IMG/VR virus record: IMGVR_UViG_3300010430_000017
Coordinates: 1 to 64,000 of that record
Strand: one strand, 5' to 3'
Source: a virus
Length of the DNA stretch: 64,000 bases
Of this stretch, positions 1 through 55,883 are shown piece by piece (position 1 is the stretch's first letter; every line of letters begins with the position of its first letter). The position numbers and the translations under genes are program-made. Below the pieces are notes generated by a model, which was not told the DNA's origin, did not search any database, and worked only from the letters and a program-made list of their open reading frames with translations.

Positions 1-2
1 AT

Positions 3-3000
3 AAAATAGTAAATAGTGTCACAACCCTTGAGAAAAATATCAATATGCTCAGAGAGAGTTTTGAATCCTTTGGAAAACCTCAAAGCTCTCCGAGTAAACC
101 TCTTAAAGATACAGAACAAGCAGCAGCTGCTTTAAATAAAGGTGTCTCCGAGCTTAACAAAGGACTAATTAACTCAACGCAATTTGCTCTCAGGTACGGG
201 AAAGCTCTTAGTGAACTAAAGTCAGAGACTAAAAGTTCATATGGTGAGAATCTCAAGTACGAGAAGAGTATCCTTAGTGCTGCTGAAGCTGTAAAGAAAT
301 CAAATACAGCAATCAGAGAACAAGAAAAAGCCATTAAAGCTTCCGCTACTGCTGCGGATAAGTTGGCAAAGCAACAAGCAACGATTAATACTGCTACTCA
401 GAAACTTAAAAGAGGTGTTTCCGAATTAAATTCTGGGCTTATCAATTCAACACAATTCGCACAAAGGTACGGTGCTGCCCTTAGTACCGTTAAAAAAGCT
501 GTTAGGGACACCACAGGTGAGAATAGATCATATGTTGATTCTTTGGAGAAGACTTCCAAAGCTCTGGATGACGTAAGGAAGAAGGAACAGCAATTAGAGA
601 AACAAACCTCCACTATGGGGAATACATTTAAAACAGTACGTGCCGCTGCGATTGGGTATGCAACTGTACTGGCTACGATGGAACTACAACAGTTTGTTTC
701 AGATACCGTCCAGGCGGGAATAGCACTTGACTCCTTGAATAGAAGTTATGCTGCAATAACAGGAAATAGTAAAGCCGCAAGAGAAGAGATTAGTTTTGTG
801 GCTAATACAGCAGAAACCCTTGGTCTTAGATTAGATACCCTTGAAAACTCATATAAAGGTGTTATCGCAGCGTCTAAAGGGACATCCTTAGAGGGAGAAA
901 ATGCAAGAAAGATATTCTTAGCTATAAACAAAGCTGCTGCTGTTTTAGGAATGTCCGCTGATGACACTGAAGGTTCATTGAGAGCATTAACTCAGATGAT
1001 CTCCAAGGGAAATATTCAAGCAGAAGAATTAAGAGGTCAATTAGGAGAACGCCTTTTTGGAGCCTTTCAGAAAGCTGCTACTGCTATGGGAGTAACAACC
1101 CAGAAGCTAAATGATATGCTTAAAAATGGGGAAGTTATTGCTGAAGATTTTATCCCAAGATTCGCGAATGTATTAGAGAATGATTTTGCTGCTGCCGCTG
1201 TTTTGGCTGGTGATAGAGTAGAAGCATCTTTTAACAGGATGTATAATGCAACAACCGAGTTCCAGAGATTACTTTCGTCCTCTGGTATCATAGCAACCCT
1301 ACAATTAATGGCAGATGAAACAACAAAATTCTTAAGGTCCCTTGATCCAGAGAAGGTAAGAACTACTGTTGTAGTTTCTGTAACCACTATTGCTGATGCT
1401 ATTGCTATCTTGAAGAGGACTGTGGAGGTTGCTTTCAAAGGTATAGACATCCTTTTGCAAGAGATGAATGTGTTGTTTTGGGAATTATCTAATACGATAA
1501 TTAATGGCCCTATAATGGCTTTACAAAGTCTTATAGACCTGTACAACAAAATCCCTTCTCTGCCTGAAATTTCTCTCCCTAAAGGATTAACAGATTTTGG
1601 TGAGGTAGTAACGGAACAAACAAACTTAGCGAGAGAAGCAGCGAGGATTGCGGTTGTAGATTTAGGGGAGATCCTGACAAGGCCCCTCCCAAGCAGTAAA
1701 ATTATAGATTTAGTTACACAAACAGTTGCATCCTTGGACAAAATAACCAAGAAGTCACTAAAGAGTAATCAAGAACAGTCCAAGAAACTCACGGATGCTG
1801 AGAAGATGAGGTTGAAGGAAATTCAGAACTCTTTAACGGATATCTCTCAAGCAGAAAGTTTGCTACTCAAAATAAAAGAATCCGGTCTTGCACTTGATGC
1901 TAAAGGTCTTTCTCTTATGGACCAACTTAAAACTTTAGTAAGTAAGAGAACAAGCCTTGAGGATGAGTATAAAAAGATTAAAGGGGAATCATCTTCCAAA
2001 GAGTTGACTGCAAACGATAAAGTAATCAAGCAATTACAAAGTATCCTAAAACTCTCTAAAGCCGAGGCCGCACAACTTGAAAAGAATCTTAAGTTACAAG
2101 CTTCTCAGGGCAGACAGGCAGCAGATCTTTTAGAAAATATTAAAAAATCAGGTATCACTCCAGTTGGCGAATTGGCTGATCAAGTAAAACAGTTAGAAGG
2201 TTTTATAACCAAAGGACAAGCAGCAGCAGAGAAATTAGCTAAATCAACAGGTGATTCTGCACAAAAATCAAAGAATAATTTTAATGACTTAACCAACGCA
2301 ATAAAAGATAATGTAAAAGAACAAGAAAAAGCTCAGAAAGCATACGAAGACTTCCTCTCTGACATAGAAGATGAAACCTCCGATGTATTCAAAGGAATCT
2401 TCGACGAAACTATAGATGACTTCAGTGATTTCACTGATAGAATGTTTGATATATTCCTCAGCATGCTTGCTGATATGGCAGCTAAAGCTATTGCTGAACC
2501 GATCATTGTGCCTATTGTCCAAGGCATTGGTGGGTATTTTGGGGTATCTACTCCCGCAGCCCCTGGTGGTAGTGCTGTGAGTAGTCTCTCTGCGTTGTCC
2601 AATATCCCCGGATTTGATTCAGTTACTGGGTTCTTGGGGAGTACAGTTCCCGGAACTGGTGTAGCTTACCAAGGGCCTGGTATTGGTGCTGCTGTAACAC
2701 AACAAGGTGGTATTTCTTACGGAGATGTCCTTGGTTATGGTGCAGCAGGAAGTTTAGGTTATTCTTTATTAGGTGGTGCTTTAGGGCTTCCTCAGTCAGA
2801 ATTCTCTGGACTAACTTCAGGAGCAGGTGCAAGTCTTGGTGGGTATTTAGCTGCTGGTACATCAATTGGTGGTCCTGTGGGAGCAATCGCAGGAGCAGTT
2901 ATTGGAGGTGTTCTTGGTGGATTATTAGGTGATGAACCCACACCTCCGAATATCGGTATTGGTGTAACTGGCTCTCAGCAAGGTAATCTTAACCAAGGGC

Positions 3001-13989: not shown

Positions 13990-14736
13990 ATGGAATTCAC
14001 TTACAACAACATCACAATCAATTTCAATGACAACAAAATGACTAACCTCACTAATATGTGGAATTCCACAGGGAAGGTTAATCATAAGAAACCTTCTCTT
14101 TGGTTTCAGAAAAGAAGCACAAAGGAACTTATTGAAAAGATTGAAGAAAAAGGAATAGGTCGAAAAAGCGACCTTTTAAAAACAACCAAAGGGCGTTACG
14201 GTGGAACCTTCGCACATTGGCAGATAGCATCAGCATATGCAAAGTATCTCTCTGCTGATCTTCACATTGAATTCAACAAATACATCAAGACTTATATTGT
14301 TGAAGAGGCTTACCCAGAGAAGGGTATTGTAAGGAACATTGAGAATTATAAGAAGAAATACAAAAGACTTGGTAAATCGGATGAGTGGATCAATACAAGA
14401 TTAATTGGTATTACACAGAGGAATGATTTCACAAGTACAATTGGTAAGATTAAAAATCTTGGTAACCATGGTTACGGAATGATTACTGATGATATTAATC
14501 TTATGATCCTTGGGGAGACTGCTAAGAATATCAAAAAGAAAACTGGTGTTAAACAAACAAGAGATGGATTGTCTCCTTCGCAACTCATGTTGATCTCTCT
14601 TGCGGAAGAACTTGCTGCTAAAGCTCTTAACGAAAAAAGTATTGAATGCATCTCGAAAGGAGAGGCTATTGATACTATGCTTGATTCAATCCAGAAACTA
14701 AGTGAAGTTGCTGAACCTCTTAAATTTAGAAATTAA
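13990..14736 (+). CDS. KilA-N domain protein
   Basis: 248 residues. KilA-N core at about 20-100, with the diagnostic GGTFAHWQIASAYAKYLS near residue 72. KilA-N is a DNA-binding fold common in phages and large DNA viruses, typically in regulatory or anti-repressor proteins. The C-terminal half is helical and ends in a segment resembling phage Rha/anti-repressor tails. First gene after the merged terminator/promoter; SD AAGGAG. Likely a cytoplasmic DNA-binding regulator. Confidence 0.8.
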   Translation: MEFTYNNITINFNDNKMTNLTNMWNSTGKVNHKKPSLWFQKRSTKELIEKIEEKGIGRKSDLLKTTKGRYGGTFAHWQIASAYAKYLSADLHIEFNKYIKTYIVEEAYPEKGIVRNIENYKKKYKRLGKSDEWINTRLIGITQRNDFTSTIGKIKNLGNHGYGMITDDINLMILGETAKNIKKKTGVKQTRDGLSPSQLMLISLAEELAAKALNEKSIECISKGEAIDTMLDSIQKLSEVAEPLKFRN

Positions 14737-25391: not shown

Positions 25392-25610
25392 ATGGCATTA
25401 GCGCTGCACATCAAAACAAATACTGAAGATTATCTGAATGTATGGGATGAATGGAGTCTTGAAAATATTGAAACTTGGATTAAATCATTAAATATTATCT
25501 CGGATGGTTGGGAAATTGCCTTGACAGGCCCTGACGAATTTGGTATAAAGAGAAAGATTAATCGTGTGATTAATCAAATTAATAGAGAAAATAACAAGGA
25601 GAATGATTAA
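25392..25610 (+). CDS. Hypothetical acidic protein, 72 aa
   Basis: SD AAGGAGG. Trp-rich (YLNVWDEWSLENIETW) with a helical C-terminus. Stop overlaps the next ATG (TAATG), so it is co-translated with the SSB-like protein. Unknown. Confidence 0.6.
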   Translation: MALALHIKTNTEDYLNVWDEWSLENIETWIKSLNIISDGWEIALTGPDEFGIKRKINRVINQINRENNKEND

Positions 25611-26593
25611 TGAGTAGGCTTGATGAATTGAAAAAGAAAGTAATTGAAGAAACCCCTGTCACAAATAATAGTGATGGACCTTCTGTTGATTATGAAGCTT
25701 TAAACAAATACATGGTTGAGACAGTTGGCCTTGAACAAGAAGAGACTGTTATTGGTATTATCTCAGGAGTAGTGAACCTTGGCCTTCAGGAGCAGCAGGA
25801 TGGTAGAGTAGAATGGAATGGCTCCCCGGAAGATGAGCAAGCTGAGATTGACAAAAACCCAAACACTTATTTTGAGACTGATTATGAAGGTAAGAGATGG
25901 AAAAGATGGCCCACTAAACCTGCTAAATCAGTAGCCCTTGTTATCGACTTCCCTGAGATTATTGTGGATAAAGCTCCTTTCTTTGGTGCTGAATCCAACC
26001 CTGCACCCCTCAGAATCTGCATGAATGGCTCTTTCTGGAGAACTGAGCTTGGTATGATGACTCTTGGTAGACCCTATCCAATGAATCTTAGAAAGAATGA
26101 GAAGACTAATAATCAGTGGTCAATGCTTCCTAATAATACGCTTTGTAAAGCTGCTGTAATGACAAAGACAATTACCAAAGGGGATGCTTTTCTTCCTCAA
26201 AACGTTATTGATTTGCTTGGTAAGTCAATGTTATTCAGTGTAAGTGTATTCTTTAATGCTAAGGGATATTACACAGAAAGAGTTAAGTTGGCTGGGGGAT
26301 TAATGAGAGGACAGCAAGTTCCTGAATATGATGAAGACCTCTTATTCTATACTGATATGAATATTACTAATGATCCTGTGAGTATTAAGTATTTGACAGC
26401 GCCTATTATTAACACAATGAAACTTAGTCCTGAATATGAAGATTCAAAGATTAAACAGCAGATTGAGGATATTCATAGTTACCAGAAGAATAATAGTAAG
26501 CCCGATGAAGGTCTTCCTGATAATACAGAATACGGTGTGGATCATACTCAGGAGAGTGTACCTCCTATTTCAGACGATGATATCCCCTTTTGA
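25610..26593 (+). CDS. Single-stranded-DNA-binding protein with bacterial SSB tail
   Basis: 327 residues. The core shows no standard OB-fold signature by eye, but the last six residues are DDDIPF, identical to the conserved tip of bacterial SSB, after a flexible acidic linker (about 285-321). In bacteria this tip recruits polymerase, helicase and repair partners. Position after polymerase and helicase matches the slot for the T7 gp2.5-type protein. DNA-binding function is inferred. Confidence 0.75.
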   Translation: MSRLDELKKKVIEETPVTNNSDGPSVDYEALNKYMVETVGLEQEETVIGIISGVVNLGLQEQQDGRVEWNGSPEDEQAEIDKNPNTYFETDYEGKRWKRWPTKPAKSVALVIDFPEIIVDKAPFFGAESNPAPLRICMNGSFWRTELGMMTLGRPYPMNLRKNEKTNNQWSMLPNNTLCKAAVMTKTITKGDAFLPQNVIDLLGKSMLFSVSVFFNAKGYYTERVKLAGGLMRGQQVPEYDEDLLFYTDMNITNDPVSIKYLTAPIINTMKLSPEYEDSKIKQQIEDIHSYQKNNSKPDEGLPDNTEYGVDHTQESVPPISDDDIPF

Positions 26594-31942: not shown

Positions 31943-32308
31943 ATGAAAAATCAATTTATTTACTGGGTAGCAATTTTGTGTGTGATTTGTGGGGTAGGAA
32001 CAAGTTTCAGTATAGATAGAATTGTTGGCTATACTAAAACAATTGAGGAGTTATCACAGAGAATCGATAAGCTCGAAGAAGAAAACAAACAATATAAAAA
32101 TCAACAACAAAGATTAACTAAATTAGAAGAATATAACGGCGAATTTTATACAAAGATTGAACAGAGAATATCAGCAAATGAGAGAAAAGCGGAGTCCATT
32201 CTTAAGTCCTCGAAGACTATGGTTGATATCCTTCAAAGGATTTCAGATGACCATACAATACTGAGAAGTAATAATGAATTGATTTTTAAATACTTTGATA
32301 TAAAATAA
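31943..32308 (+). CDS. Membrane-anchored coiled-coil protein, 121 aa
   Basis: SD AAAGGAGAAT. One N-terminal membrane segment (residues 6-24) followed by about 90 residues of coiled coil. Topology resembles an i-spanin or a membrane-anchored lysis/exclusion regulator, but it is far from the lysis cassette. Function unknown. Confidence 0.6.
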   Translation: MKNQFIYWVAILCVICGVGTSFSIDRIVGYTKTIEELSQRIDKLEEENKQYKNQQQRLTKLEEYNGEFYTKIEQRISANERKAESILKSSKTMVDILQRISDDHTILRSNNELIFKYFDIK

Positions 32309-33786: not shown

Positions 33787-34032
33787 GGTTTTTGTAAAGG
33801 CTACTTTTCTATTACTCTCTACAAATTCTTTTACTTTTAATGAGATGGTAGTTTTTAGTAGCCTATTACTCACTCCTTATTTTTCTGAAGGGTATCCATT
33901 ATTAATCAATTTATTTTCTTAGAGACAGGGTGTAAAAAGAGGTCTTATTTTCTGTAGAGATCTCAGGGTTTTTGTAATTTCTTATTTTTCTGGAGCATAG
34001 GGTGTAAACAGGTCCTACTTTTTCTGTGAAGC
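33785..34032 (+). repeat. Degenerate direct repeats in a noncoding AT-rich region
   Basis: Four imperfect copies begin AGGGT near 33785, 33927, 33964 and 33999. The clearest pair (33927 and 33999, 72 bp apart) share AGGGTGTAAA..AG..GGTC.TA.TTT.TCTGT. Separate phrases CTTATTTTTCTG recur. No credible gene from 33787 to 34604. Possible origin, partition-like site or remnant of a decayed insert. Confidence 0.5.
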
Positions 34033-34146
34033 CATAAAAATCTCACACAATAGATCTTTTAATAAGTATTCATTTATTTATAATTAATTGAACACTTATT
34101 AATTTATTTATAAAAGTACCCACTAATTTAAAATAATATCGTTACT

Positions 34147-34314
34147 GGTACAATTCTTGCAAATCCCTAAAATAATCATAAAAACTTTCCTGAAACAATG
34201 TTCATGGTACAATTCTTGCAATTCCCATAAACTAAACAATGTTTCACCTCCAGGTATCATTTCTCGCCTTATATCTTCAATTCTAACAGCGTTTCAGTCA
34301 CCCCCTGGTATCAT
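34147..34314 (+). repeat. Short direct repeats (GGTACAATTCTTGCAA twice; GTTTCA...GGTATCAT twice)
   Basis: The exact 16-mer occurs at 34147-34162 and 34206-34221 (59 bp apart). A second pair, GTTTCA then GGTATCAT, starts at 34241 and 34291. The remaining sequence to 34546 is AT-rich with no supported gene. Confidence 0.55.
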
Positions 34315-34546
34315 CATATCAACTCCATCAAAACGTGTCTTAAATTACTTGTTTTAATAGCAGAATTAAAAATCATGTTAGATAGTCTGTCACATCCTCT
34401 TAGTAATATCCAATTGTTTAACCTGATATATATTCAGTCAATCTCTTGGAATAATCCTACCTTATTATAATAGCTATAATTCTCTGTATAAAATCCCCAA
34501 TGATTATAATGATTTAAAATAGTATGAAGAAATATTAAAAATTCCC

Positions 34547-39896: not shown

Positions 39897-40547
39897 ACAG
39901 GAATAGGCAAGTTTTTGGTTTTGGTTGATAATAAAACATAAGATTATTCTGCATAATACCTGCTATTAGCTTAGGCTTTAAAAATAGTGCTTTAAATTGA
40001 CGTTTAGGTAAGGGTTGATACGATGGTATAGACCAATGTCTAAAACGCTCTTAAAAAGGCAATTTATACGCACTGAGCTAATACTTTTGCAATAGAATAA
40101 TCCTTAGTTGATCTCCAGGATTACACAAAACTCATTGGCATCTATTTTGCAGAATGATTTGCAAAAGAAAAAACAAAGAAAAGAAAAAGAAAAAAAGAAA
40201 AGAACCAAAAGAAAAAAAGAAAAAGAAAAGAAAATAAAAAGAAAATATTTATAGGGTATAAAAGAACATTATTCGCTTCGCTCATTGTAGCCTTTCACTG
40301 CGTTAGCTTTTCTTTTATTCTTTTTACAACACTAAACCTTCCTATCTCTTGGCTGATTATGGGTTGTTTAAGGCTTAAGTTATTAAAATCTTTGTCTTTT
40401 GGACAAGTATTAAGACTTTTAGTAGTTACTTTTAAGTCTTGTGCAGTTAAAGCATTGTTGTGGGCAAAGAATGTAAATTCTGACAAGTGTATCTGGTGTT
40501 CTTTTGTATAGAAACAAATAGGTAATTTGACAGGAATAGGCAAGTTT
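39895..40547 (+). repeat. Noncoding segment bracketed by an exact 20-bp direct repeat
   Basis: TGACAGGAATAGGCAAGTTT occurs at 39895-39914 and 40528-40547, 633 bp apart, same orientation. Between them are an AT-rich stretch with a possible promoter (TTGACG-16-TACGAT, 39997-40024), a nearly pure purine tract (about 40162-40247) and GC-containing words (CGCTTCGCTC). No + strand gene; one 82-codon - strand frame is unsupported. Looks like an insertion or a cis-acting site. Confidence 0.6.
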
Positions 40548-41055: not shown

Positions 41056-41361
41056 ATGAAAGTATTAGTGATTTTCGATCTAATCCCAGAAGAAACAAAA
41101 AAGGCTATCGTGGATATGACTCAAGAGGAATATGATTACTTCAAACAAGGTGACGGCTGTATCATCGGCACGATGGGGAATACAGATGAACAAGAGGTAA
41201 TTGTGAATGTGATAAATAATGCTTTTTGTGAGGATGAAAAATGCAAAGAATATTGCGAAAATGACCAAGAGCTTAAGTATTTCGGTAAATTCGAACATCA
41301 AGAGAATACTTCGGATCTACGTGGTGTTGATTATATGATTTATTGCGGGTGCTTTCTTTAA
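41056..41361 (+). CDS. Conserved phage protein, 101 aa
   Basis: SD AAAGGATATA. Starts VLVIFDLIPEETKKAIVDM, a motif of a small phage family of unknown function (pattern LVIFDLIPEE). Central Cys cluster CEDEKCKEYC is acidic. Confidence 0.65.
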   Translation: MKVLVIFDLIPEETKKAIVDMTQEEYDYFKQGDGCIIGTMGNTDEQEVIVNVINNAFCEDEKCKEYCENDQELKYFGKFEHQENTSDLRGVDYMIYCGCFL

Positions 41362-41403
41362 GCTGAGGGGATGTAAAGCGATAAAATAAAAAAGGGGAAT
41401 CAG

Positions 41404-42054
41404 ATGAAGACTTTTGAATATGATGGTAAACAGTTTGAAGCGGTAATAATGAATGATCCTGGTACTTGTAGGTCATGCTCTTTCAGAGAAATGGATAGTT
41501 GCCCAAGAGACTTAACGAATTATTGTGACGATCATCCTATTGTATTCCATGAGATCAAGAAAAAAGAATTTGATGCAGTTAAGGTTGAAGAAAACAAAGA
41601 AAGTTTTGTAGTAAAACATAACAACAAAGAATACGAATTCAGGGCTTTTACTTTGATTGATCTATATAAAAAGAAATTTCATAGAAGAGAATTTATCAAG
41701 CTAATGGAAAGAATGGAGGAAATTAACTTTGGTCCGGGAGAAGAAGTTATCTCAGAAACTGAATTTCTGCACCTTCGTGTTTTGTCAAAAAATATTAGTT
41801 GGCTTATTGATAATGGCTTCGGGAAACAAATTGTCAAAGAAACGATGTTGGAACCGGGGATGGTGCTTGTGAGTGATAAACCGGAGAAAGAGGAACTTGT
41901 GTATATTAATAAGGATAAACTTATAATGGGTAAGGGCTGGATTCTTAATCGGTCCTGGTACGATAAAGGGCAGGCAAAACTTTACCCATGTAGGACACTT
42001 GAGAAATTAAATAAGTATTCTTTGTTTACATGGAAAATTAAACCCACTGACTAA
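41404..42054 (+). CDS. Hypothetical protein, paralogue of 15522-16166
   Basis: 216 residues, SD AAGGGGAAT. N-terminal Cys cluster CRSCSFREMDSC..YC, then EFRAFTLIDLYKKK, LEPGMVLV and KLYPCRTLEKL in the same order as the gene at 15522. The shared layout suggests duplication of a phage-specific family. Function unknown. Confidence 0.65.
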   Translation: MKTFEYDGKQFEAVIMNDPGTCRSCSFREMDSCPRDLTNYCDDHPIVFHEIKKKEFDAVKVEENKESFVVKHNNKEYEFRAFTLIDLYKKKFHRREFIKLMERMEEINFGPGEEVISETEFLHLRVLSKNISWLIDNGFGKQIVKETMLEPGMVLVSDKPEKEELVYINKDKLIMGKGWILNRSWYDKGQAKLYPCRTLEKLNKYSLFTWKIKPTD

Positions 42055-42073
42055 GTAAACTTATTTACTGTTT

Positions 42074-42122
42074 AAATCCCAGTATGTTATTTCTGATAGT
42101 AACATACTGGGATTTATTATTT
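42074..42122 (+). terminator. Strong hairpin terminator (16-bp stem)
   Basis: AAATCCCAGTATGTTA / TAACATACTGGGATTT, 10-nt loop, then ATTATTTG. A second palindrome, GTGCTTTAAAAGCAC, follows. It ends the 40.6-42.05 kb operon. Confidence 0.75.
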
Positions 42123-42414
42123 GTGCTTTAAAAGCACAGTATTTCTTTACTGAGGCACTACTAAACGGTAGTTTATGAAGTATCTGAATAGCAATTACTT
42201 GTAATTGAATGTGAAAATATACCAGGGAATATAATATACAATGATCTTCGGATACTGTGGTATTAGCGGGTTTGATGGGGGTATATATTGTGTGATACTA
42301 TATATTGTGGTTTGTTTTTATTAAGCTATTAATTTTTTATTTAATTTGTATTTGTTTTTTATGAAACTGTTTGTTTGTTTTAAGCCCTCAATGCAATCTC
42401 CGTGCCACTAAGTT

Positions 42415-42480
42415 GATATATCAGTAATATACTTAAGATATATCAAAAGAATACTATAGATATATCACTGGTATACCAAA
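42415..42480 (+). repeat. Three-copy 22-bp iteron array
   Basis: GATATATCA begins at 42415, 42437 and 42459, exactly 22 bp apart. Each repeat is GATATATCA, five variable bases, ATAC(T/C), three bases ending in A. A degenerate fourth start (GAAATACCA) falls in register at 42481. GATATATC is itself a palindrome. The whole 42123-42546 region has no gene and is AT-rich. Candidate replication-initiator or repressor binding array. Confidence 0.7.
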
Positions 42481-42546
42481 GAAATACCATGCAATAATCC
42501 TACCAATTAATCCCACAACAAAATAAATAAAAATACAAAATAACCA

Positions 42547-42575
42547 TTGACAAGTATAATTTTGTTTGATATATA
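42547..42575 (+). promoter_or_regulatory. Promoter TTGACA-17-TATATA (copy 1)
   Basis: -35 42547-42552, -10 42570-42575. Spacer AGTATAATTTTGTTTGA is identical to the promoter at 43032. It starts 67 bp after the iteron array and drives 42621. Confidence 0.75.
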
Positions 42576-42620
42576 GGATCTATGATAAACAATAAATCAA
42601 ATATCAATCAGGAGGACACT

Positions 42621-43019
42621 ATGTCAAAAGATTATGCTCTTATAAATTCAATGCCGGATTCGTCTTATGATTATTCCGCTGGATACTGCCATAGAATGGT
42701 ATCTTACTTTAAACTGAATCACCCCAATATGGTAAACAGTATTAAAGCCTGGGAAGATGAAGCAATAGTTAGAGCAGAACAACGGGAGAGTATCTGGGGG
42801 GAGGATCTTTCCGAGACTGAAACTACCGAAGAAACCACAACGGATCAAACAAGTACTGAATACCCCAACCTTGATAACTCCATCCCTGAAGACAGCACAC
42901 CGGTTGAGATACTCACAGGACCCTTTACAGGAATAACAGCGTACACAAGAGATAATAGGCTGTTTGGTATGGTGTTTGGTCTTGCCCTTGAGATTAATCC
43001 TACAACAAAACAATATTAA
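42621..43019 (+). CDS. Hypothetical acidic protein, 132 aa
   Basis: ATG 42621 after AGGAGGACACT (frame opens at 42582). Middle is Glu/Thr-rich and probably disordered (SETETTEETTTDQTST); C-terminal strand-rich segment GPFTGITAY. Somewhat higher GC than neighbours. No family recognised. Confidence 0.6.
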   Translation: MSKDYALINSMPDSSYDYSAGYCHRMVSYFKLNHPNMVNSIKAWEDEAIVRAEQRESIWGEDLSETETTEETTTDQTSTEYPNLDNSIPEDSTPVEILTGPFTGITAYTRDNRLFGMVFGLALEINPTTKQY

Positions 43020-43031
43020 TTAAAATAATCA

Positions 43032-43060
43032 TTGACAAGTATAATTTTGTTTGATATATA
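43032..43060 (+). promoter_or_regulatory. Promoter TTGACA-17-TATATA (copy 2)
   Basis: -35 43032-43037, -10 43055-43060; same 17-bp spacer as copy 1. Drives 43095-43637. Confidence 0.75.
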
Positions 43061-43094
43061 TGATCCATCAAACAAAAACTAAGGAGCTAACGAC

Positions 43095-43238
43095 ATGAGA
43101 CATTTAATCACCGCCAGCATTATAGAACTAACAATCATGGGTTTACTGGTAATGGATATGAACAATCACGGTATCGTCTCCCAGTTGTTGTTTGCAGCAA
43201 TCAAGACTTACATCAACCCCGAATTGACCTGGAGTTAA
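43095..43238 (+). CDS. Membrane microprotein, 47 aa
   Basis: SD AAGGAGCTAAC. One hydrophobic helix (ITASIIELTIMGLLVM) plus an amphipathic helix. Unknown. Confidence 0.55.
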   Translation: MRHLITASIIELTIMGLLVMDMNNHGIVSQLLFAAIKTYINPELTWS

Positions 43239-43637: not shown

Positions 43638-43651
43638 TATAACCAACAATT

Positions 43652-43688
43652 AAACCCCTGGAGTTAATTCCCCAGGGGTTTTGTTTGT
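43652..43688 (+). terminator. Terminator between converging gene arms
   Basis: AAACCCCTGG / CCAGGGGTTT, 10-nt loop, T-rich 3' side. It resembles the 29.67 kb terminator but lacks a -35. The rest of 43689-43912 is AT-rich with no supported gene. Confidence 0.8.
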
Positions 43689-43912
43689 CTTGTATGATAA
43701 CAATGTTCACAAGAATTAACTTGCAATTCTTATGCCAGTAACAATGTTAATATTATTTATCAAGATATTTTCGATTTACCATCGTTCTTGGTATGGTTAT
43801 TGCTTGTGTGTTAAACACCTAACTCTCTATTTTTATTATATATCCTAATTCTCTCTATGAAGTCTTTTATATCTTTGGTATTTTACTAATAAATAGTTCT
43901 CTTTTGCATAAT

Positions 43913-52864: not shown

Positions 52865-55177
52865 TTATCCACATTTACTAAATCCGCACTCCTTGCAAAT
52901 CAGACATCCACCCTCATTGACATATGATGCTAAGCCGCATTCAGGACAGATTTTTCCAACAGATACTTCAGGATCTTCAATAGGAAGATACTTAGAAAGA
53001 ATCCTCTTAAGAATTCCAGCAGCATCTACCATGGAATACGTACTCTTATTTAACTGATCTATAATCTCCTCCACAGGAATCCCGTATCTAAGGGACATTG
53101 AGCATACTCTGCATAGCGAATCCCATAGACTATTACGCTCCTGGAATAGAACAGGATTAAAAGTGCCATCTCCATTATGCCCACCCTCTTTAGGTAATTT
53201 AACAAATACCTCTATTGGATTCCCTTCCTGATCAATACTTACATTAATGTAAATTTTACTTCCTTTCCAAGAAACTCTATGCCTCACTGCTGTCTCTTCA
53301 TCAAGAAGCTCTTTCTCGTATAGTTCCGGCATTACGCATTCAGCTACTTCTTCAGTATCCGTACTTGAAAGAACACCTTCCTTGCAACCATCTCGAAAAA
53401 CAGTGACACCTTTGAGACCCTTGGACCAAGCGTACTTATAAATCTCTTGGATAGTCTCCTTTTTGGTATCATTCGAAAGATTAATAGTAGAACTGATCGA
53501 GGCATCAATATTCTTCTGTAAAGCGGCTTGCACATTAATCCTATCTTTCCAATGAATCTCATTAGCTTCAACGTAGCCCATCTTGTTCTTTGCTTGCTCA
53601 AGAGTAAGTCCTTTGAATTCATCTAAGTTATCAAGCATATGCTGTGCAGCCGGGAGATGGATGAAGGAGTATTCTTTATTATCAATTCTATTCTTTCTTT
53701 TATAGGAAAACTTAAATATAGGTTCAATTCCTGACGAACAATTCCCAGAAACAATACTAATACTACCACAAGGACCAATTGTGTTGAGAGATGTATTAGC
53801 AAGACCATAATCTAAGATATTCTCTTTTAATGCACCTTCTATCTTATACCATGGGTTATCAACAAAATTATTCCTTGCTGCTGTTGAACTCATAGCCTCA
53901 CAGCATTTACCTTGGACAGCAAGATCATTGGATGCAACTAATTGTGAATACATTATAGAATCAGTGATATCATTAGCAAGATCTATGGAATCTTCATCTC
54001 CGTAAGTAAAACCTAATTTTTGACATAGATCTCCAAACCCTGTTAACTCAACACCAATCCTTTTACCAAATTTATCCACTGATCTTTGCTCAGCTAATGG
54101 GTGCAAGTCCTCATTCATATCAGAAAACAAGTTCATCAAGCGTGTAGCTACTTCTGCGTCCTCTTCTAAGGAAACAATATCAAGTCTCCCATGCAAAAGA
54201 TAAAAAGGGAGCACAAACGCGCCAAGCAGGCAGTTTGAATCTCCAGCCATGGGTTGTTCAGAACATGCATTGTATCCAAACGGCTTCAAAGATTTATCAA
54301 TATAAGTCCCAAAAGTATTTTTCTGTACTGTTGTGATGTATGAAGTTCCTGGATCTCCACAAATCCAAGCTGCCTCCGACAATTGACTCAAAACATCTCT
54401 TGCTTTGATAGTTTTATACTCTTTAAATTTACCTCCTATTTCAAACCACTCATCATAATCACCATCCCAGCAAGAGTTATATAATTCTTTATCAGCCTCT
54501 ATATCAGGAAAACAAAACGTCCAGTCCTCATCATTCTCTACAGCAGTCATAAATGAGTCAGTAAGTTTTAATGTTATATTAGCATTATTAATGGCCGGCA
54601 GTTCTTTTGTAAAAACATCTTCTTCAAAAACTTTCTCTGGCTTTGCTTTACTCCAAATAAAATCAAGTGTATCTGGGTGCCGACAATCAAGAGAGATCAG
54701 CAATGCTCCACGTCTACCAAACTGGCAGATTGTTTTAGTTAACTCAGAAAAACTTGGCATAAAACTAACAGCGCCGGATGAAGTTCTTGCTGCATTCTCT
54801 ACGGAATGTCCTTTTGGTCTTAGAATGGATATATCTGTACCAACGCCTCCTCTATAAGAGAAGGTTCTCGCAATCTGTTTATGTGCTTCATATATCCCTT
54901 CAATACTGTCATGCCTGATAGGAACATAATAGCAGTTACTAAAGCTGCTGGTTGCGCCTGAATTACAGGCACTCAGAATACTCCCAGCGGGAATGAACTT
55001 ACCACTTCTTAGAAGTTCTTTCTGATCCTTGTCCGTGATGTTACAACAATCAATAACTCCTTCAATTACATCTTTGATATCTTCATGCCCATATTTATTC
55101 TTTGTGACCATGGCCACGAAATCTTCATGCTCTGCAATACTCGTCTCCAACAACTCCTTTGTAATAACCTCAGTCAA
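52865..55177 (-). CDS. nrdJ: Class II (B12-dependent) ribonucleotide reductase
   Basis: 770 residues; TTG start supported by GGAGGAATAAA and by the lack of an ATG nearby. Active-site landmarks: SACNSGATSSFSNCYY (about 70-84), NACSEQPM (Asn-Cys-Glu, about 300-305), GPCGSISIVSGNCSSG (about 470-485) and a C-terminal zinc ribbon CPECG..CKECG. Reduces ribonucleotides to deoxyribonucleotides using adenosylcobalamin and needs no oxygen. Class II is inferred from the NrdJ-type layout and the absence of a small subunit nearby. Core of the nucleotide cluster. Confidence 0.9.
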   Translation of the reverse strand: MTEVITKELLETSIAEHEDFVAMVTKNKYGHEDIKDVIEGVIDCCNITDKDQKELLRSGKFIPAGSILSACNSGATSSFSNCYYVPIRHDSIEGIYEAHKQIARTFSYRGGVGTDISILRPKGHSVENAARTSSGAVSFMPSFSELTKTICQFGRRGALLISLDCRHPDTLDFIWSKAKPEKVFEEDVFTKELPAINNANITLKLTDSFMTAVENDEDWTFCFPDIEADKELYNSCWDGDYDEWFEIGGKFKEYKTIKARDVLSQLSEAAWICGDPGTSYITTVQKNTFGTYIDKSLKPFGYNACSEQPMAGDSNCLLGAFVLPFYLLHGRLDIVSLEEDAEVATRLMNLFSDMNEDLHPLAEQRSVDKFGKRIGVELTGFGDLCQKLGFTYGDEDSIDLANDITDSIMYSQLVASNDLAVQGKCCEAMSSTAARNNFVDNPWYKIEGALKENILDYGLANTSLNTIGPCGSISIVSGNCSSGIEPIFKFSYKRKNRIDNKEYSFIHLPAAQHMLDNLDEFKGLTLEQAKNKMGYVEANEIHWKDRINVQAALQKNIDASISSTINLSNDTKKETIQEIYKYAWSKGLKGVTVFRDGCKEGVLSSTDTEEVAECVMPELYEKELLDEETAVRHRVSWKGSKIYINVSIDQEGNPIEVFVKLPKEGGHNGDGTFNPVLFQERNSLWDSLCRVCSMSLRYGIPVEEIIDQLNKSTYSMVDAAGILKRILSKYLPIEDPEVSVGKICPECGLASYVNEGGCLICKECGFSKCG

Positions 55178-55178
55178 T

Positions 55179-55454
55179 TTATTCCTCCAATACCTTCAAA
55201 ATATTATCAATTCTTGTTTTTATATTCTTGAATTCATAGATGATCTGTTCTTTCTCGTTTCTGAGATAATCATCTTCCTCGTCATCCCATCCTCGATCAG
55301 AGTCTCCATGTAGTAAGCAGAAATCCATCCAATAAACTGCTTCTAAATATCCATTAGTAGTTCTGTAAAAGTGGTCACATTCAAGACCCCAATCATCAGT
55401 TCCAACTCCAGATTCAGCTAATAGGTCTACTATTTCATGAGTTACTTCCTTCAT
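55179..55454 (-). CDS. Acidic hypothetical protein, 91 aa
   Basis: Stop one base before the nrdJ start, and its last codons contain the nrdJ SD, so the two are coupled. Acidic (SDRGWDDEEDDY). Unknown. Confidence 0.6.
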   Translation of the reverse strand: MKEVTHEIVDLLAESGVGTDDWGLECDHFYRTTNGYLEAVYWMDFCLLHGDSDRGWDDEEDDYLRNEKEQIIYEFKNIKTRIDNILKVLEE

Positions 55455-55462
55455 AACCTCTC

Positions 55463-55678
55463 CTATATAATAAAATTAACTTCTCCAACACAACCACTCT
55501 GATACTTTGTCTGAAATTTATAGCACCATCCACAATCTTTGTCAAGACATTTGTTTGGTTTAGTAGATAATCCCTCACCTATCTTCCACGCTCTATAAAC
55601 AGAATTATTCTGTATAATAGCTTCTTCGTATACATAATCACTGTAAATATCAATACAAGCTTGTTCTGCTTTACTCAT
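55463..55678 (-). CDS. Cys-containing protein, 71 aa
   Basis: SD AAGGGATAAAA. NKCLDKDCGWCYKF suggests a metal site. Tyr-rich N-terminus. Unknown. Confidence 0.6.
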   Translation of the reverse strand: MSKAEQACIDIYSDYVYEEAIIQNNSVYRAWKIGEGLSTKPNKCLDKDCGWCYKFQTKYQSGCVGEVNFII

Positions 55679-55883
55679 TTTTATCCCTTTCCAAAGTACT
55701 TAAGAGATCCCCGCACAAGTTAATTTCAGACGGAATACACTTAAGCACTACTTTTACTCCTTCGTTGAATGGAAATTCAATATGAAGTTTTGAGATACAC
55801 AAGTCCCCTGTAATATCCTCTCCTTTTGAGTTTAGTATACGAGTATCATTAGTTGCTCCTGTTTCATTTATAACCTTAATCAT
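55671..55883 (-). CDS. Hypothetical beta-rich protein, 70 aa
   Basis: The strand pattern KVINETGATNDTRIL ... GEDITGDLCISKLHIEF resembles many small phage proteins with an 'I...DIT...I..I.I' pattern, function unknown. ATGA overlap with the membrane peptide upstream. Confidence 0.6.
   Translation of the reverse strand: MIKVINETGATNDTRILNSKGEDITGDLCISKLHIEFPFNEGVKVVLKCIPSEINLCGDLLSTLERDKNE

What the first reader, a model, noticed from the sequence alone, without database searches (positions are those of the whole stretch)
42415..42502. Precisely spaced 22-bp iterons upstream of twin promoters
GATATATCA repeats at exactly 22-bp intervals with shared ATAC(T/C) in the second half, a degenerate fourth copy in phase, and a strong promoter 67 bp downstream. 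Two helical turns put every site on the same DNA face, as in initiator iterons or cooperative repressor arrays.
Basis: partly seen in the sequence, partly recalled or inferred. Interest (0 to 1): 0.7.

Follow-up and report, generated by a model that had tools for sequence, protein, structure and literature searches.

The report
Phased binding-site array, phage control region
A virus of bacteria carries a row of seven short, partly mirror-symmetric DNA sites, one per helix turn, squeezed between two promoter-like signals, most likely a landing strip for a protein that controls them; the protein is not known.

Summary
The array is real and unique in this 82.4-kb phage genome. The "22-bp iterons" are really seven 11-bp units (42414-42490; right half ATAYYW; best copies are the palindromes TGATATATCA and TGGTATACCA) in the longest called intergenic gap of the window (42055-42620). 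The near-consensus sigma70 promoter (42547-42575) and its copy 485 bp on are confirmed.

The genome has six such matches; 0.14-0.17 are expected. In a Pakpunavirus an unbiased repeat scan found one noncoding two-turn array, of a different palindrome, also upstream of an exact sigma54-like site: about -60/-81/-101 from the inferred start, against -59.5/-81.5/-103.5 here.

Best reading: a cooperative protein-binding (enhancer/operator-type) array, most likely serving the sigma54-like element. Rivals: operator of the rightward sigma70 promoter; replication iterons. Against it: no activator, initiator, RHH or HTH_3 gene found in the phage, no sense gene behind the leftward site, and no relative except a near-identical contig shares this array. 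All is computed; nothing was measured.

The parts
42414..42490 (+). array of seven 11-bp units (10-bp sites TGRTATAYCA-like); strong units start at 42414, 42436, 42458, 42469; weaker ones at 42425, 42447, 42480
42392..42407 (-). exact sigma54-type -24/-12 element TGGCACGGAGATTGCA, pointing left; inferred start about 42381
   Evidence: promoter activity is inferred
42490..42505 (-). one-mismatch sigma54-like element TGGTAGGATTATTGCA at the other end of the array
42547..42575 (+). sigma70-type promoter TTGACA-17-TATATA, extended -10 TGA
43032..43060 (+). second copy of that promoter, 485 bp on, without array
42073..42116 (+). terminator-like hairpin with 17-bp perfect arms, closing the upstream gene
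42055..42620 (.). noncoding gap that holds the array, longest between called genes of the window (566 bp)
42621..43019 (+). 132-aa protein of unknown function behind the rightward promoter
41404..42054 (+). 216-aa protein of unknown function upstream; antisense to any long leftward transcript
43722..43737 (-). exact sigma54-like element in the gap 43638-43912
43789..43804 (+). exact sigma54-like element in the gap 43638-43912
34146..34161 (+). exact sigma54-like element, first of a repeated pair
34205..34220 (+). exact sigma54-like element, second of the pair

Best explanation
The array is a cis-acting landing strip for a dimeric sequence-specific DNA-binding protein in a phage control region. 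Strong palindromic sites in a 22-bp series, with weaker sites between them at 11 bp, put bound dimers on one helix face so that they can assemble cooperatively. Most likely it works as an enhancer-type (upstream activation) array for the leftward sigma54-like element at 42407-42392: the protein, probably host-encoded, would contact sigma54-RNA polymerase and drive a leftward, probably non-coding or antisense, RNA from about 42381. Shown by computation: the array, its phasing and uniqueness, the exact sigma54-like match, its over-representation, and the similar geometry in a Pakpunavirus. Inferred: binding, promoter activity, activation, the RNA. The broader claim 'regulatory protein-binding array' I would put at about 0.7; the number below is for the sigma54 enhancer form.
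For: Array and phasing. Exact sigma54-type element 6 bp away; six exact matches in the genome against 0.17 expected, at most 2 of 200 Markov genomes, and 0.14 for permuted patterns, at most 2 of 300; five share an upstream extension, GTT in four and CTT in the one by the array. Barba1A has 4 against 0.16 and 20Sep418 6 against 0.20. In 20Sep418 the only noncoding triple repeat with 9-24 bp spacing (54657, spacings 21/20) lies upstream of an exact sigma54-like site, and so does the matching array of PAK_P1. Site centres relative to the inferred starts: -59.5/-81.5/-103.5 here, about -60/-81/-101 in PAK_P1.
Against: The sigma54 scan was post hoc: two of the six sites prompted it. No sigma54-activator domain in the phage. 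No ORF of 15 or more codons with a Shine-Dalgarno-like signal on the minus strand in 41301-42500, so the leftward RNA would have no sense gene; 43737- and 43789+ also point at the 3' ends of opposite genes. The array is unique, so the other five sigma54-like sites lack it. Many sites in relatives lie inside ORFs, and PAK_P1 has two that face each other 2 bp apart. Enhancer sites usually lie further upstream than -60 (recalled). No relative but a near-identical contig has array plus element: 1 of 16 stretches. Host unknown.
Confidence: 0.35

Rival explanations
1. Operator array for the rightward sigma70 promoter: a phage or host repressor or activator bound at about -98 to -165 controls the 132-aa gene, directly or by looping.
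For: The promoter is strong and lies on the same side of the terminator; its -10 region TGATATATAG resembles the site (the sequence; score 8 of 10 by my count on the consensus).
Against: The array ends 57 bp before the -35; the duplicated promoter copy has none; 8 of 10 matches are common (199 places at 8 or better in the genome); a TTGACA-17-TATATA promoter needs little help. No HTH_3 or RHH_1 domain in the phage.
Confidence: 0.27
2. Replication origin iterons: an initiator binds the two-turn repeats and melts the flanking AT-rich DNA.
For: Two-turn palindromic repeats in an AT-rich noncoding gap, like the semi-palindromic RepA_N and PLE iterons (PMC7145576 and PMC8263062, passages).
Against: No RepA_N or Rep_3 domain, no DnaA box in 42000-43100, cumulative GC skew maximum rather than minimum, convergence of transcription nearby.
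Confidence: 0.2
3. Partition (centromere-like) site bound by a ribbon-helix-helix adaptor.
For: 11-bp direct repeats upstream of a promoter, as in plasmid R1 parC (recalled).
Against: No RHH_1 domain in six frames; no partition family among the hits shown; no sign of plasmid maintenance.
Confidence: 0.03
4. Functionless AT-rich repeat.
Against: Simulation controls; the units differ from each other yet keep phase and core, unlike a fresh tandem duplication.
Confidence: 0.05

Closest known systems
sigma54 promoters with upstream activation sequences for enhancer-binding proteins (NtrC type; recalled)
   Same: exact -24/-12 element, tandem dyad sites on its upstream side in helical phase
   Different: sites start closer (-37); no activator in the phage; no sense gene downstream; activity untested
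Pakpunavirus gap array (PAK_P1 55356-55407, 20Sep418 54657; found here)
   Same: noncoding gap, dyad sites at about two turns, upstream of an exact sigma54-like site, similar distances, sigma70-like promoter further on
   Different: different site sequence (GTTAG-N4-CTAAC), 20-21 bp spacing, three sites, no 11-bp intermediates seen
Plasmid and phage origin iterons (RepA_N, PLE; PMC7145576, passages)
   Same: tandem semi-palindromic repeats, AT-rich flanks, noncoding region
   Different: no initiator gene of the families tested, no DnaA box, skew maximum
11-bp direct-repeat arrays of OmpR/PhoB-type regulators and of ParR (recalled)
   Same: 11-bp head-to-tail repeats with a conserved hexamer
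   Different: no such domain encoded by the phage; strong units are palindromes

Membership tests
sigma54-dependent promoter with UAS | -24/-12 consensus (TGGYAYR-N4-TTGCW) | tested here: met
   exact at 42407-42392 minus
sigma54-dependent promoter with UAS | tandem dyad activator sites upstream of -24 | tested here: met
   array at -37.5 to -103.5; that they bind an activator is untested
sigma54-dependent promoter with UAS | enhancer-binding protein (PF00158) | tested here: inconclusive
   none in the phage; a host one is possible, host unknown
sigma54-dependent promoter with UAS | gene in sense downstream | tested here: not met
   no ORF of 15 or more codons with Shine-Dalgarno-like signal on minus in 41301-42500
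sigma54-dependent promoter with UAS | rpoN-dependent transcription | not testable with these tools
   needs RNA data
iteron-controlled replication origin | tandem iterons about two turns apart | tested here: met
iteron-controlled replication origin | cognate initiator gene | tested here: not met
   RepA_N and Rep_3 absent; initiators of unknown family not excluded
iteron-controlled replication origin | DnaA boxes beside the iterons | tested here: not met
   none in 42000-43100
iteron-controlled replication origin | replication starts here | not testable with these tools
   skew maximum speaks against
ParR/parC-type centromere | RHH adaptor and motor genes | tested here: not met
   PF01402 absent; no partition family among the hits shown
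OmpR/PhoB-type regulator array | 11-bp direct repeats | tested here: met
OmpR/PhoB-type regulator array | Trans_reg_C protein | tested here: inconclusive
   absent from the phage; host unknown

The most novel reading that the evidence does not exclude
Some apparently virulent myophages (this one, Barba1A, Pakpunaviruses, perhaps PAK_P3) carry clusters of host sigma54 promoter elements in noncoding gaps, at least two of them with helically phased enhancer arrays, and so couple control-region transcription, partly of non-coding or antisense RNAs, to a host enhancer-binding protein that reports the state of the cell.
Probability: 0.3. Interest if true: 0.75.

Novelty: new variant of a known kind. 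Interest (0 to 1): 0.5.

Why it matters
If right, tailed phages use the enhancer-dependent sigma54 machinery, which cannot fire without an activator and is wired to nutrient and envelope stress (recalled). That would be a direct molecular link between host physiology and phage gene control, testable in laboratory Pseudomonas with Pakpunaviruses. Five literature searches on this point (listings only) showed no title or abstract start that reports it, and in the PAK_P3 transcriptome paper (PMC4933390, passages) 'rpon' occurs 0 times. Most subscription journals were not searched.

Tried and rejected
Relatives of the array: the pair pattern GATATATCA-N10-16-GATATATCA in viral contigs gave 59 stretches. 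Read, they look like coding or simple repeats, chance pairs or other spacings, except the near-identical contig L027/L062 and L039. L039 has four copies at 22 bp with an 11-bp half-period (TGATATATCAAGTGATACACAG) but no BLAST match to the window; I judged it an independent array. BLAST of the gap against phages matched the promoter and its upstream A-rich stretch (best: phage XG4, E 1e-3; eight others E 0.6), and against plasmids AT-rich stretches of Staphylococcus and Sporosarcina plasmids at E 0.01-0.6, judged chance.

RNA hypothesis: the leftward RNA 42381-42060 folds with z -4.6, but the terminator hairpin lies in it and the plus strand folds nearly as well (z -4.0); 34232-34540 shows nothing (z +0.7). 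Rfam gave three matches, all under their cut-offs.

Relatives by flanking, polymerase and terminase proteins in viral contigs: only the near-identical contig. Structure prediction was not used: no alignment depth and no candidate binder.

Full report
WHAT THE WINDOW IS. The window is bases 1-64000 of a virus record of 82,544 bp. Its first and last 123 bases are identical, so the record closes to 82,421 bp. It encodes a tape measure protein, large terminase, portal, PolA-type DNA polymerase, primase-helicase and ribonucleotide reductase: a tailed phage. Named phages are distant: terminase 43% to Rheinheimera Barba phages, polymerase 36-37% to Vibrio phages of the ICP1/PWH3a kind, one protein (25610-26593) 33% to Pakpunaviruses. 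The only close relative found is a contig 99.94% identical over 8,252 bases, whose 5 differences all lie outside the gap. It adds no evolutionary evidence.

THE ARRAY. Three exact GATATATCA copies 22 bp apart, the in-phase fourth copy and the shared ATAC(T/C) are confirmed. The finer structure is an 11-bp repeat of seven units, 42414-42490. The right half of each unit reads ATATCA, ATACTT, ATATCA, ATACTA, ATATCA, ATACCA, ATACCA. Two units are perfect 10-bp palindromes, TGATATATCA and TGGTATACCA, and these are the only two full matches to TGRTATAYCA in the genome. Four weaker or intermediate units (1, 3, 5, 6), summed apart, exceed all 100,000 random draws from the neighbourhood. The period-11 score is 59 (genome mean 22.9, sd 3.7); the best at periods 8-10 and 12-14 is 41. 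The consensus was derived from the array, so these scores favour it; the motif-free measure ranks the place second at period 11, behind a low-complexity A/G tract at 40167.

THE SURROUNDINGS. The array lies in the longest gap between called genes of the window (42055-42620, 566 bp), after a terminator-like hairpin (42073-42116) and before a promoter TTGACA-17-TATATA (42547-42575). A second copy of that promoter stands at 43032-43060 (88% over 56 bp), and two looser relatives (63%) at 32302 and 36821. The downstream 132-aa and upstream 216-aa proteins match no Pfam or PHROG family and no phage record. The gap turns from T/G-rich to A-rich close to the array.

THE SIGMA54-LIKE ELEMENT. While reading other gaps I saw TGGTACAATTCTTGCA twice, a form of the sigma54 -24/-12 consensus (consensus recalled). 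A scan for TGGYAYRNNNNTTGCW found six exact matches in the whole genome: 34146+, 34205+, 42407-, 43737-, 43789+, 61910+. Expected: 0.17, at most 2 in 200 first-order Markov genomes; permuted patterns average 0.14, at most 2 of 300. Caveats: two of the six prompted the search; those two overlap a doubtful 45-aa ORF of my own gene caller, and 61910 can equally be read as an extended -10. Five of the six share an extension: GTT at five to three bases before TGG in four, CTT at 42407-. The 42407- element is six bases from unit 0. A one-mismatch element (42505-42490, minus) touches the other end of the array.

RELATIVES. Twelve records, this phage included: 27 matches against 3 for the reversed pattern (6, 4, 6, 0, 0, 0, 1, 3, 0, 0, 6, 1 in the order; PAK_P1 and 20Sep418 are close kin, so their six sites are largely the same). 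Six further distant relatives: 12 against 2. The excess is clear here, in Barba1A and in the Pakpunaviruses, weaker in the second set, and absent in ICP1, PWH3a-P1, 277E43-1, T4 and phiKZ. Of the 39 sites read in context many lie in ORFs of 60 aa or more. A scan for 7-mers repeated three times at near-equal spacing of 9-24 bp gave, in all 91 kb of 20Sep418, a 12-bp repeat inside a gene and one other place, 54657 with spacings 21/20; in the window, only the present array; in Barba1A, only 221 entries of which the first 40 listed belong to one tandem-repeat region at 10.8-10.9 kb. The 20Sep418/PAK_P1 array is the near-palindrome GTTAG-N4-CTAAC, three times, in the gap 55193-55816 of PAK_P1, upstream of an exact sigma54-like site. 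Measured from the inferred starts, sites are centred at about -101, -81, -60 in PAK_P1 and at -103.5, -81.5, -59.5, -37.5 (the 22-bp series) here. With a spacing of about 21 bp such agreement has, by my estimate, a chance of the order of one in ten, so it is suggestive only. The same Pakpunavirus gap holds two sigma54-like sites facing each other 2 bp apart (55588+, 55606-), which is odd for promoters; a non-promoter role of the element therefore stays possible. PAK_P3 has two sites in a 510-bp gap before an annotated promoter but no comparable array by the scan.

WHAT BINDS IT. Six-frame searches of the phage found no RHH_1, OmpR-type C-terminal, RepA_N, HTH_3, Rep_3 or sigma54-activator domain. 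One KilA-N match (assigned to 13990-14736) is the only recognised DNA-binding regulator; nothing ties it to the array. Among the hits shown for the other scanned proteins there is no further candidate (two Pfam and sixteen PHROG families of the joint scans were not shown; phrog_129 'transcriptional regulator' is one of those shown and may be the same protein). A host protein, or a phage protein of unknown family, is therefore the likelier ligand.

WEIGHING. A regulatory protein-binding array is well supported; which promoter it serves is not. The sigma54 reading is favoured by the exactness of the element, its over-representation, adjacency and comparative geometry. It is weakened by the lack of a sense gene to the left (no ORF of 15 or more codons with a Shine-Dalgarno-like signal on minus in 41301-42500), by the odd directions of other sites, and by the post-hoc route. 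The origin reading keeps some weight for its two-turn palindromic repeats, as in RepA_N and PLE origins (PMC7145576 and PMC8263062, passages), but lacks a recognised initiator and sits at a skew maximum; the PaP1 paper takes the skew minimum as the usual origin (PMC3652863, passages). A pattern scan for 'GATATAYCA, then a sigma54-like site 3-9 bp on' gave 16 viral stretches; only the near-identical contig has an array, so this exact module is not widespread in that collection.

PAPERS. Seen as passages only: PMC7145576, PMC8263062, PMC4933390, PMC3652863. All other papers: search listings only.

Noticed in passing
window 34141-34231: A 32-bp direct repeat (84%) 59 bp apart, each copy holding TGGTACAATTCTTGCA, a sigma54-type element; it led to the genome-wide scan.
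   Followed up: yes
window 43638-43912: Gap between converging genes with two sigma54-like elements back to back (43737 minus, 43789 plus), both pointing at the 3' ends of opposite-strand genes.
   Followed up: partly
L237 (PAK_P1 55588-55621) and L199 (20Sep418 54438-54471): Two sigma54-like sites face each other 2 bp apart and form one long palindrome TGGCAC-N5-TTGCAATTGCAA-N5-GTGCCA; a similar half (TTTAGGTTGGCATGGGATTTGCAATTGCA) is in phage XD2 (L249).
   Followed up: partly
L039 11725-11799: Unrelated viral contig with four GATATATCA copies at exactly 22 bp and an 11-bp half-period, just before a 216-aa ORF that by eye has membrane segments and a helix-turn-helix-like end (not tested).
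   Followed up: partly
window 40162-40253: Long A/G-rich tract (AAAAGAAAA repeats), with strong strand asymmetry, in a noncoding stretch.
   Followed up: no
window 33787-34090: Noncoding gap with loosely repeated GGTTTTTGTAA / GGGTGTAAACAGGTCC / TTTTTCTGTGAAG-like segments, which recall TTTTCACAGA repeats in the PAK_P1 and PAK_P3 gaps.
   Followed up: no
record G000 (window 1-123 equals its last 123 bases): Identical 123-bp ends: the assembly closes, although the record is grouped with 'linear' wording in the tool's header.
   Followed up: partly
Genome-contig loci L106, L108, L122, L128, L137, L146, L171: Yersinia and Serratia share GATATATC sites at 19 bp with an extra one about 36 bp away, in some directly before a small gene starting MFGFSKRGHRH-like: probably an operator of its own regulator (by eye).
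   Followed up: no
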